Notes under the pieces: generated by a model
The model's database searches: none
The model's input: only the letters and a program-made list of their open reading frames with translations
Told to the model about the DNA's origin: nothing
Assembly (NCBI RefSeq): GCF_037975245.1
Contig: NC_092569.1
Span: 21,101,001-21,165,000, forward strand
DNA from: Apostichopus japonicus
Lineage: Eukaryota > Echinodermata > Holothuroidea > Aspidochirotida > Stichopodidae
DNA length: 64,000 nt
Direction: 5' to 3'
Made by a program: the position numbers and the translations under genes
Shown: positions 22,540-22,735 of the stretch, piece after piece
Numbering within the stretch: position 1 is the first letter of the stretch
Layout of the letters: each line of letters begins with the position of its first letter

Positions 22540-22735
22540 TAACACACCAGTAGAATCACTGTGGTCGAGTGGTACGGGCTTAGGTTCGTGACACGAAGAT
22601 CCGGGGTTCGATTCCTACCTTCGCCTGATGAGTCCCAAAAGGACGAAACCGGTCGTGAAGTGGAATTTTTCTGGTGTGTTATTCTTTATTGAATTACTAT
22701 ATATCTGTCATACCACTATACACATTCATTTCTAT
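22540..22735 (+). mobile_element. tRNA-like SINE (family 2) containing a hammerhead ribozyme
   Basis: The A box TGGTCGAGTGG is at 22562-22572 and the B box GGTTCGATTCC at 22605-22615, so the element has a pol III type 2 promoter layout. A hammerhead ribozyme follows at once (see separate entry). An 11-nt inverted repeat (22540-22550 and 22671-22681) encloses the tRNA-like and ribozyme parts. The body continues to about 22735 and ends in (TA)n (22735-22831). Eroded relatives are at 6190-6520 and 44670-44990. Confidence 0.7.
22610..22667 (+). ncRNA. Candidate type I hammerhead self-cleaving ribozyme
   Basis: Core CTGATGA at 22625-22631; stem II GTCC (22632-22635) and GGAC (22641-22644) with loop CAAAA; GAA at 22645-22647; minimal stem III ACC/GGT (22648-22653); C17 at 22654, so cleavage is predicted after 22654. 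Stem I pairs CTTCGC (22619-22624) with GTGAAG (22655-22660), then after a small internal loop GATTCC (22610-22615) with GGAATT (22662-22667). Every universally conserved core base is present. A loop-less stem III of 3 bp is seen in newt-satellite and retrozyme hammerheads and usually works best as a dimer. Activity is inferred, not shown. Confidence 0.8.

What the first reader, a model, noticed from the sequence alone, without database searches (positions are those of the whole stretch)
22610..22681. Complete-looking type I hammerhead ribozyme in a tRNA-like SINE
All invariant core bases are present, stems I and II pair, stem III is a minimal ACC/GGT, and cleavage is predicted after C22654. 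An 11-nt inverted repeat (22540-22550/22671-22681) closes the whole domain. Known relatives are the Schistosoma alpha repeats, newt satellite 2 and animal retrozymes. A copy in this SINE family may be undescribed.
Basis: partly seen in the sequence, partly recalled or inferred. Interest (0 to 1): 0.9.

Follow-up and report, generated by a model that had tools for sequence, protein, structure and literature searches.

The report
Sea-cucumber hammerhead-ribozyme mobile element
The sequence is a real, fairly young copy of a small mobile RNA element that carries a self-cutting hammerhead ribozyme, in what looks like the sea cucumber Apostichopus japonicus; it belongs to a kind already known from flukes, newts, corals and mussels, and its ribozyme looks built to cut only when two copies pair.

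Summary
In detail: RF00163 38.8 bits (cut-off 34), the only such motif in the window, none in 60 Markov windows, C17 = C22654. The genome matches Apostichopus japonicus. Core plus stem II occurs exactly at 317 places (reversed pattern 0); five copies, this one included, are identical over 142 nt on five contigs.

It is more than a SINE with a ribozyme. The unit is a 341-349-nt repeat with tRNA-type A and B boxes; the B box is also part of stem I. Copies start at many points; 82 of 132 tails end at two AT-rich sites followed by (TA)n, 13 read into a next unit, and none of 36 sampled copies ends at the cleavage site. That suggests a circular or multimeric RNA template. Head-to-head pairs within 30 nt number 34, tail-to-tail 0. 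The window copy is joined head-to-head to another tRNA-like repeat.

Stem III is the palindrome ACCGGT with no loop, so one copy cannot close it; the predicted dimer is a double hammerhead, the predicted monomer buries the core.

Filed as an Smalpha-like non-LTR retrozyme; no echinoderm one was found in the papers searched. Cleavage, circles and the mobilising enzyme are untested; covariation was not above shuffles.

The parts
22537..22733 (+). This copy of the hammerhead element: unit positions 182-349, then through the 349|1 junction to position 29 (numbering of the 349-nt unit in L010)
   Evidence: blastn of the 349-nt unit, 100% identity in both pieces
22540..22550 (+). Left arm of the 11-nt inverted repeat
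   Evidence: part of the element in close copies
22562..22572 (+). A box of a tRNA-type pol III promoter (TGGTCGAGTGG)
   Evidence: 0 A+B pairs in 100 Markov windows
22605..22615 (+). B box (GGTTCGATTCC); its last six bases are also the outer 5' strand of hammerhead stem I
22610..22667 (+). Type I hammerhead with extended, internally looped stem I
   Evidence: RF00163 22619-22660, 38.8 bits; Hammerhead_HH9 22608-22675, 40 bits, below its own cut-off of 52
22625..22631 (+). Core CUGAUGA
22632..22644 (+). Stem II GTCC/GGAC with loop CAAAA
   Evidence: stem II pairs in 99.4% of cells of 41 copies, many of which were chosen by hammerhead score
22645..22653 (+). GAA then ACCGGT: zero-loop, self-complementary stem III
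   Evidence: 79 of 94 copies with a standard core carry ACCGGT; 15 more copies examined were not standard; dimer fold
22654..22654 (+). Predicted cleavage 3' of this C (C17)
   Evidence: descriptor; inferred, no cleavage assay
22666..22670 (+). TTTTT, possible pol III terminator; 3 of 20 newly fetched copies (L102, L104, L105) end at or next to it
22671..22681 (+). Right arm of the 11-nt inverted repeat
22694..22733 (+). The two sites at which copies end: ACTATATAT (site 1) and CACATTCATTTC (site 2); this copy passes site 1 and ends at site 2
   Evidence: of 132 3' tails: site 1 + (TA)n 53, site 2 + (TA)n 29, read into a next unit 13, all other classes together 37
22733..22841 (.). (TA)n tract that follows the 3' end
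22080..22538 (-). Antisense copy of a second tRNA-like 373-nt repeat ('SINE-B'), joined head-to-head to the hammerhead copy with a 2-nt overlap
22027..22088 (.). (TA)n tract at the other outer end of the head-to-head pair

Best explanation
A non-autonomous, non-LTR, retrozyme-type mobile element of (most likely) Apostichopus japonicus, built like schistosome Sm-alpha. Shown by sequence: 341-349-nt unit, tRNA-type A/B boxes, type I hammerhead with an extended stem I, zero-loop palindromic stem III, two AT-rich 3' end sites followed by (TA)n in most tails, variable 5' ends, some head-to-tail multimers, many head-to-head pairs. Inferred steps: (1) RNA polymerase III, or read-through from a neighbour, makes multimeric RNA. 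(2) Two hammerheads in one multimer, or in two molecules, pair through ACCGGU into a double hammerhead and cut after C17, releasing unit-length RNA. (3) The ends are ligated by a host ligase to a circle, in which the lone hammerhead is misfolded and so stays uncut. (4) A reverse transcriptase supplied by another element copies the circle, primed where TA-rich target DNA can pair with the TATATAT of the unit (site 1) or with site 2. It stops anywhere (5' truncation) or goes round more than once (tandem units). (5) Because (TA)n is self-complementary, both DNA ends at the break can prime; the two cDNAs are joined head-to-head. In this window the second cDNA was made from a different repeat RNA.
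For: Hammerhead. Species fit. Copy number: core + stem II exact in 317 places, reversed-pattern control 0; RF00163 hits 59, 50 of them over the cut-off, only 74 of 66,307 first-look candidates scored. Recent activity: five copies, window included, identical over 142 nt on contigs C8, C9, C12, C17, C18. Conservation in copies chosen by a 5' segment that excludes the ribozyme (38 of the 40 places aligned, 2 of them lack the domain): mismatches in core and stems 14 of 1116 cells against 85 of 1944 in the tRNA-like part, p 7e-7; single-copy changes about as frequent per site in both (10 on 31 sites, 22 on 54), shared variants fewer in the ribozyme (2 against 13, rough p 0.04). That is what neutral decay of dead copies plus selection on source copies would give. 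Dimer: cofold -40.1 kcal/mol against 2 x -18.0, exact double-hammerhead pairing; core C, U, G paired with probability 0.94, 0.89, 0.94 in the monomer. Template not cut linear RNA: of the 36 sampled copies with the domain, none ends at the cleavage site; 13 of 132 tails run into a next unit. One template per insertion in part: units within one insertion differ at 1/140 (L010), 1/89 (L065), 1/57 (L066), 5/249 (L063), 3/100 (L085), against a median of 0.099 per site between loci. Both-end priming: 34 head-to-head neighbours within 30 nt, 0 tail-to-tail, in 80 distinct loci; 26 and 0 if both pieces must be 40 nt or longer, 21 and 0 at 60 nt. (TA)n at both outer ends in 14 of 32 head-to-head loci, against 35 of 1196 flank 40-mers at one place.
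Against: No cleavage, circle or RNA data. Covariation is not above shuffles (score reached by 177 of 500). The palindrome ATCGAT (one copy) is not predicted to form the full six-pair dimer stem. Units in other tandem insertions are less alike (L064 5/101, L024 9/207, L053 9/122, L044, L046 and L047 15/150, L067 13/118), so at least some tandems join different RNAs or are old. Only 31 of 48 single-orientation loci meet the (TA)n criterion at the 3' side and 15 of 48 at the 5' side; 18 of 32 head-to-head loci lack it at one or both outer ends. Pol III alone would start near the A box, yet many copies extend far upstream of it, so the promoter does not explain those transcripts unless they come from multimers or circles. 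Three copies end at or next to the T-run, which suggests that some templates were ordinary pol III transcripts. The reverse transcriptase is unknown.
Confidence: 0.72

Rival explanations
1. An ordinary tRNA-type SINE that once picked up a hammerhead; the ribozyme is a passive passenger, and tandem and head-to-head forms come from later insertion of one copy beside another in TA-rich DNA.
For: A/B boxes and 5' truncation fit a SINE; three copies end at or next to the T-run; single-copy changes hit the ribozyme about as often per site as the rest; some neighbouring units differ by 7-11%. PMC7761336 (one passage) says metazoan retrozymes could be regarded as a novel family of SINEs, so the two readings overlap.
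Against: Sequence upstream of the promoter is part of the unit, and 13 of 132 tails continue into a next unit without an intervening (TA)n tract. Chance nesting would give tail-to-tail as often as head-to-head: within 30 nt 0 against 34; the only two tail-to-tail neighbours lie 115 and 469 nt apart. Core and stems carry fewer mismatches and fewer shared variants than the tRNA-like part; 21 core letters are intact in 317 places against 190 for a 21-mer just 3' of them.
Confidence: 0.15
2. A decayed satellite repeat spread by DNA-level events (unequal exchange, gene conversion, segmental duplication), with no RNA stage at present.
For: Segmental duplicates exist among the held loci; the newt and schistosome relatives were first described as satellite DNA (PMC7229834, PMC6155905).
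Against: Copies are mostly dispersed single or partial units, on at least 22 contigs, with one-sided truncation and recurrent 3' ends; five identical 142-nt copies lie on five contigs.
Confidence: 0.06
3. The hammerhead acts by itself as a monomer, and the dimer model is unnecessary.
For: Stem I is long and stem II is complete; a two-stem monomer is only 2.6 kcal/mol above the predicted minimum; tertiary contacts that can stabilise natural type I hammerheads are not in the energy model.
Against: Stem III has no loop, so its three pairs cannot form in one molecule; the monomer minimum pairs the core letters; axolotl hammerheads with a one-pair stem III and palindromic tetraloop cut poorly alone and well as dimers (PMC7229834).
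Confidence: 0.2

Closest known systems
Schistosome Sm-alpha / Sj-alpha elements
   Same: Type I hammerhead in a roughly 335-nt SINE-like repeat (PMC8490949, passages) with tRNA similarity: a full tRNA-Gln is reported in schistosome repeats (PMC4918200, passages), and almost all of the 2,368 S. mansoni tRNA-Gln-TTG predictions were classed as SINEs similar to Sm-alpha (PMC2770079, passages). Core and stem II letters are nearly those of the Rfam type I consensus.
   Different: Here only the A and B boxes remain, not a callable tRNA. Stem III ACCGGT has no loop, where the Rfam consensus has ACG, two positions, CGU. Host is an echinoderm. No Sm-alpha sequence was aligned here, so common descent is untested.
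Metazoan non-LTR retrozymes (Cervera and de la Pena 2020, PMC7229834, parts 1-4 of 6 read)
   Same: Type I hammerhead, 341-349-nt unit within the published 170-400, GC 41%, tandem copies, no LTR.
   Different: No circular RNA shown here; mostly single or partial units; tRNA-type promoter boxes overlapping stem I; many head-to-head copies ending in (TA)n. That paper's main text has no 'SINE', 'echinoderm' or 'Apostichopus'.
Newt satellite 2 / axolotl HHR_Amex1
   Same: Stem III reduced to a six-letter palindrome, expected to work as a double hammerhead (PMC7229834 part 3; PMC6155905 passages).
   Different: Host and copy number differ (126,247 motifs in axolotl); here stem I carries a B box. 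Sequences were not aligned.
Penelope-like elements with minimal type I hammerheads
   Same: Type I hammerhead and tandem copies; proposed mobiliser of retrozymes (PMC7229834).
   Different: Autonomous, with a reverse transcriptase; none was identified here because the planned genome search did not complete (seven tries).

Membership tests
Type I hammerhead ribozyme (RF00163) | Score at or above the curated cut-off, with core CUGANGA, GAA and NUH | tested here: met
   38.8 bits against 34; letters
Type I hammerhead ribozyme (RF00163) | Three helices that can form in one molecule | tested here: not met
   Stem III has a 0-nt loop; a pair of copies forms all helices in the prediction. Known dimer-acting hammerheads share this defect, so it does not by itself exclude the family
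Type I hammerhead ribozyme (RF00163) | Self-cleavage after C17 | not testable with these tools
   needs transcription in vitro
Type I hammerhead ribozyme (RF00163) | Helices supported by covariation among copies | tested here: inconclusive
   91.7% of cells paired, but the covariation score is reached by 177 of 500 shuffles; isolated double changes ACGCGT and ATCGAT, one copy each
Metazoan non-LTR retrozyme | Short repeat unit (170-400 nt), low GC, no LTR | tested here: met
   341 nt and 349 nt, GC 0.41
Metazoan non-LTR retrozyme | Tandem copies, dimers upward | tested here: met
   13 of 132 tails read into a next unit; three same-strand copies 341 nt apart at C14:10469418-10470120
Metazoan non-LTR retrozyme | Expressed as linear and circular RNA | not testable with these tools
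   no RNA data
Sm-alpha-like SINE | Pol III A and B boxes at tRNA spacing, upstream of the hammerhead on the same strand | tested here: met
   that Sm-alpha has this same layout is recalled, not read here
Sm-alpha-like SINE | Full tRNA-Gln-like sequence | tested here: not met
   No tRNA called at the hammerhead element by Rfam (E up to 5) or ARAGORN
Penelope-like element | Own reverse transcriptase / GIY-YIG endonuclease | tested here: not met
   The 341-349-nt unit is too short for one; a search for a partner did not complete

The most novel reading that the evidence does not exclude
A circular-RNA retroelement that enters (TA)n microsatellites by priming from both DNA ends. The self-complementary target lets two circles, even of two different element families, be copied at once and joined head-to-head. 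Its zero-loop palindromic stem III works as a switch: off in the single circle, where ACCGGU ties up the core, and on in multimers, where two ACCGGU pair.
Probability: 0.3. Interest if true: 0.72.

Novelty: new member of a known kind. Interest (0 to 1): 0.48.

Why it matters
Hammerhead retrozymes are thought to move through RNA circles; the parts of the papers that I read give a model for the copying step but no genomic record of it. This family leaves readable traces: permuted ends, units with a shared history, recurrent priming sites, head-to-head joins and two-element chimeras. It would add an echinoderm to the hosts, in an economically important species, and it offers a hammerhead whose dimer dependence is written in one palindrome. 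If circles are found, the way circles are reverse-transcribed and joined becomes directly testable.

Tried and rejected
Mobilisation by the LINE next door (RT ORF near 20224-22089; RVT_1), argued from a shared 3' tail: it looked promising because the window LINE runs into TTCATTTATATATA like the 373-nt repeat. In 19 of 20 fetched relatives the sequence goes on to GCGCTATATAAATGCAT (16 exactly; L123, L126 and L139 with one base different) and a TTA-rich tail; L134 diverges. So the window LINE is cut short and the tail match is chance: the shared-tail argument is rejected. The LINE as helper is not excluded; in 7 of the 20 the fetched stretch has TATATA at or near its end.

Covariation as proof of structure: a first structure string was misplaced (discarded); the correct one gave no signal above shuffles.

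A hammerhead on the minus strand of the 373-nt repeat: 10 shared letters; local alignment score reached by 27 of 1000 shuffles on the minus strand and 513 of 1000 on the plus strand. Rfam finds nothing but tRNA (E up to 5). Not pursued.

Linear, hammerhead-cut monomer as the template for reverse transcription: not supported, none of 36 copies ends at the cleavage site.

A search for a Penelope-like partner through GIY-YIG (PF01541), a more divergent unbiased sample (L039 segment) and a control pattern in the tRNA part never got an answer.

Samples and dropped rows. Loci L029-L058 and L077-L100 came from the hammerhead-score search, so their core conservation was not used as evidence; loci L009-L028 and L061-L076 came from similarity over 142 nt. 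The loci are a mixture of both. Dropped: 11 overlapping or segmentally duplicated loci; a slightly different 11; from 78 full-length domains 43 kept below 96.5% mutual identity, of which I left out three by hand (L040, L049, L087) before the alignment; 2 of the 40 places not fetched; two loci without the domain (L106, L118) left out of the rates. Not dropped: near-duplicate pairs such as L023/L101, L019/L075 and L111/L112 stay and add to the shared variants; duplicates also stay in the stem III tally.

Full report
WHERE IT IS. The window lies at C9:21101001-21165000 of a 671,581,487-base genome in 35 contigs. Contig sizes (C16 46.04 Mb, C23 18.20 Mb), a 16,099-base contig whose COX1 reads through in the echinoderm and flatworm mitochondrial code, and the published A. 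japonicus assembly of 671.6 Mb, 34 scaffolds and 23 chromosomes of 18.21-46.02 Mb (PMC10344927, passages) agree. I take the species to be Apostichopus japonicus; no name was given by a tool. That paper lists SINEs at 0.02% of the genome and 4,963 tRNA genes; the words hammerhead and ribozyme do not occur in its main text.

THE OBSERVATION. The hammerhead is real: RF00163, 38.8 bits, cut-off 34. A descriptor written for type I hammerheads finds this site and no other in 64 kb, and none in 60 Markov windows. The 142-nt domain folds at -56.9 kcal/mol, z -4.3, 0 of 200 shuffles as low; the circular 349-nt unit of L010 folds at -98.1, z -3.4, 1 of 200 as low.

THE FAMILY. The exact core plus stem II occurs at 317 places in the genome, 0 for the reversed pattern. 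For the 142-nt domain 40 of 1126 first-look candidates were scored; they gave 45 matches, 40 of them full or nearly full at 97-100% identity, five of these (this one included) identical over all 142 nt and on five contigs. So the family was active recently. A 21-mer just 3' of the ribozyme is intact at 190 places, fewer than the ribozyme's 317, although copies are anchored at their 3' side. The two patterns are not quite equal, since the ribozyme pattern leaves the loop free.

IS THE RIBOZYME KEPT? To avoid picking copies by their ribozyme, I searched with 91 nt of the 5' part (40 of 530 candidates scored) and read what follows. Thirty-eight of the 40 were aligned; two lose the domain. In the other 36, core and stems show 14 mismatches in 1116 cells against 85 in 1944 in the tRNA-like part (p 7e-7). 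Changes seen in one copy only are about as frequent per site in both parts (10 on 31 sites, 22 on 54; p 0.49). Changes shared by two or more copies are rarer in the ribozyme (2 against 13; rough p 0.04, duplicates not removed). A strict pattern counts 26 of 36 as intact. Among 40 close copies chosen by similarity the number of private changes per site is also alike: 17 on 48 sites of the ribozyme, 19 on 57 of the tRNA-like part. The plain reading: copies decay neutrally once inserted, while the copies that give rise to new ones keep the ribozyme. Decay of individual copies is seen and covariation is not, but the founders' core looks spared.

ANATOMY OF THE UNIT. A tandem pair in L024 gives a 341-nt unit, L010 gives 349 nt. 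The A box (22562-22572) and B box (22605-22615) have tRNA spacing; no such pair arises in 100 Markov windows. The last six bases of the B box are the outer 5' strand of stem I. A TTTTT run (22666-22670) follows stem I. Sequence upstream of the boxes also belongs to the unit, so the promoter sits in the middle of the repeat, as expected of a circular or tandem unit and not of a plain SINE.

ENDS OF COPIES. Among 132 3' tails, 53 end at site 1 (ACTATATAT) and 29 at site 2 (CACATTCA...) with (TA)n following, 13 read on into a next unit, 26 end at or near site 1 and 5 at site 2 without meeting the (TA)n criterion, 4 pass site 1 and end otherwise, 2 end early. 5' ends are scattered over the unit. 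No copy of the 36-copy sample ends at the cleavage site. The window copy itself runs 182-349 and on through 1-29. A cut linear monomer would not give this; a circle or an uncut multimer would.

HEAD-TO-HEAD PAIRS. In 80 distinct loci, 34 pairs of neighbouring copies lie head-to-head within 30 nt and none tail-to-tail; with both pieces at least 40 nt the counts are 26 and 0, at least 60 nt 21 and 0. Two tail-to-tail neighbours lie 115 and 469 nt apart. (TA)n at both outer ends is met in 14 of 32 such loci; single-orientation loci have it at the 3' side in 31 of 48, at the 5' side in 15 of 48, and at both in 11; random 40-mers of the flanks in 35 of 1196. The window copy and L091 are joined head-to-head to the 373-nt repeat instead. 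The simplest account is priming at both ends of a break in (TA)n, whose two strands carry the same letters. Twin priming is known for L1 (recalled). One search for twin priming together with microsatellite, SINE and inverted listed five papers, none of which concerns this by title; one for Penelope-like elements with hammerhead, inverted orientation and tandem listed none.

CIRCLE OR MULTIMER? If one circle is copied more than once, the units of one insertion should be alike. They are in L010 (1 of 140), L065 (1 of 89), L066 (1 of 57), L063 (5 of 249, one shared rare letter) and L085 (3 of 100, two shared rare letters); they are less so in L064 (5 of 101), L024 (9 of 207), L053 (9 of 122), L044 and its kin L046 and L047 (15 of 150) and L067 (13 of 118). 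Pairs of different loci have a median of 0.099 differences per site. Both copying round a circle and joining of different RNAs may occur. Three copies end at or next to the T-run, which fits some use of ordinary pol III transcripts.

THE DIMER. Stem III is ACCGGT with nothing between its arms. Of 94 copies with a standard core, 79 have ACCGGT, 5 ACTGGT, 4 ACAGGT, 2 ACCGAT, and one each ACCAGT, ACGCGT, ATCGAT and ACCTGT; 15 further copies were not standard. Two 68-nt hammerheads are predicted to pair as the textbook double hammerhead at -40.1 against 2 x -18.0 kcal/mol. Of eight observed hexamers put into the window context, only ACCGGU and ACGCGU give the full six-pair stem III; the palindrome AUCGAU does not. 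In the predicted monomer the core CUG pairs with CGG of the same hexamer, and these three core letters are paired with probability 0.89-0.94, a fold without activity. For ACGCGU the core is freer (0.13, 0.26, 0.88), so the off-state would belong to the common type. It could protect a circle from cutting itself; this is inference, and the energy model knows no tertiary contacts. The nearest precedent is axolotl HHR_Amex1, with one stem III pair capped by a palindromic tetraloop, poor alone and good as a dimer (PMC7229834, part 3 read).

WHAT IS KNOWN. Sm-alpha is called a SINE-like element with a hammerhead in PMC2770079 and PMC8490949 (passages). [quoted passage not shown] PMC7229834 (parts 1-4 of 6 read) established circles in coral, mussel and axolotl and proposes LINEs or Penelope-like elements as helpers. 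PMC7761336 (one passage) says metazoan retrozymes could be regarded as a novel family of SINEs. Searches of the paper library for a description here: hammerhead ribozyme with sea cucumber, 1 paper, on CRISPR; with echinoderm, 4 papers, none on this by title; SINE with holothuri and tRNA-derived, 0; Apostichopus japonicus with circRNA and ribozyme, 0. PMC3088659, a survey of hammerheads, has no 'echinoderm', 'sea urchin' or 'Strongylocentrotus' in its main text. Only open-licence papers are held; two central papers (PMC108972, PMC2941103) are not; Repbase, Rfam's own genome annotation and supplements were not seen. So 'undescribed' means not found in these.

VERDICT. The motif is genuine and part of a recently active family. 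The kind is known; the host, the overlap of B box and stem I, the loopless palindrome and the head-to-head (TA)n architecture are what is new to me. Cleavage, circles and the enzyme are untested.

Noticed in passing
window 9270-11246: A second tRNA-like repeat ('SINE-B', 373-nt unit) forms a 5.3-unit tandem array, the other units 99.7-100% identical to unit 9624-9996. Its seven insertions in the window end at unit position 130 or 131 and start at various points, so it too looks copied from a circular or multimeric RNA, yet no ribozyme is found in the array (Rfam E up to 5).
   Followed up: partly
window 4353-4574, 6693-6877, 42856-43076, 45164-45402, 57665-58179: Further SINE-B copies. Rfam and ARAGORN report several of them as tRNA genes (ARAGORN: tRNA-Cys, anticodon aca), so tRNA counts for this genome are probably inflated by this repeat.
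   Followed up: partly
window 20539-22021: Open reverse-transcriptase fragment of a LINE (RVT_1, E 1.3e-31) between (TA)n tracts; its 3' end is cut short compared with 19 of 20 relatives, which go on to a TTA-rich tail.
   Followed up: yes
window 3108-4274 and 41617-42816 (minus): Two near-identical long open frames, serine/threonine-rich with a cysteine-rich end, each with a 216-nt tandem duplication; by eye they look like a duplicated mucin-like gene, with fibrinogen-like frames nearby.
   Followed up: no
L044-L047 (C1:12104173-12121066): A local cluster in which the hammerhead element and flanking DNA are amplified several times over about 17 kb.
   Followed up: no
L029 1470-1570: Divergent copy with stem III ACGCGT, the best RF00163 score among the candidates scored (46.7 bits) and closer to the Rfam consensus than the common type.
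   Followed up: partly
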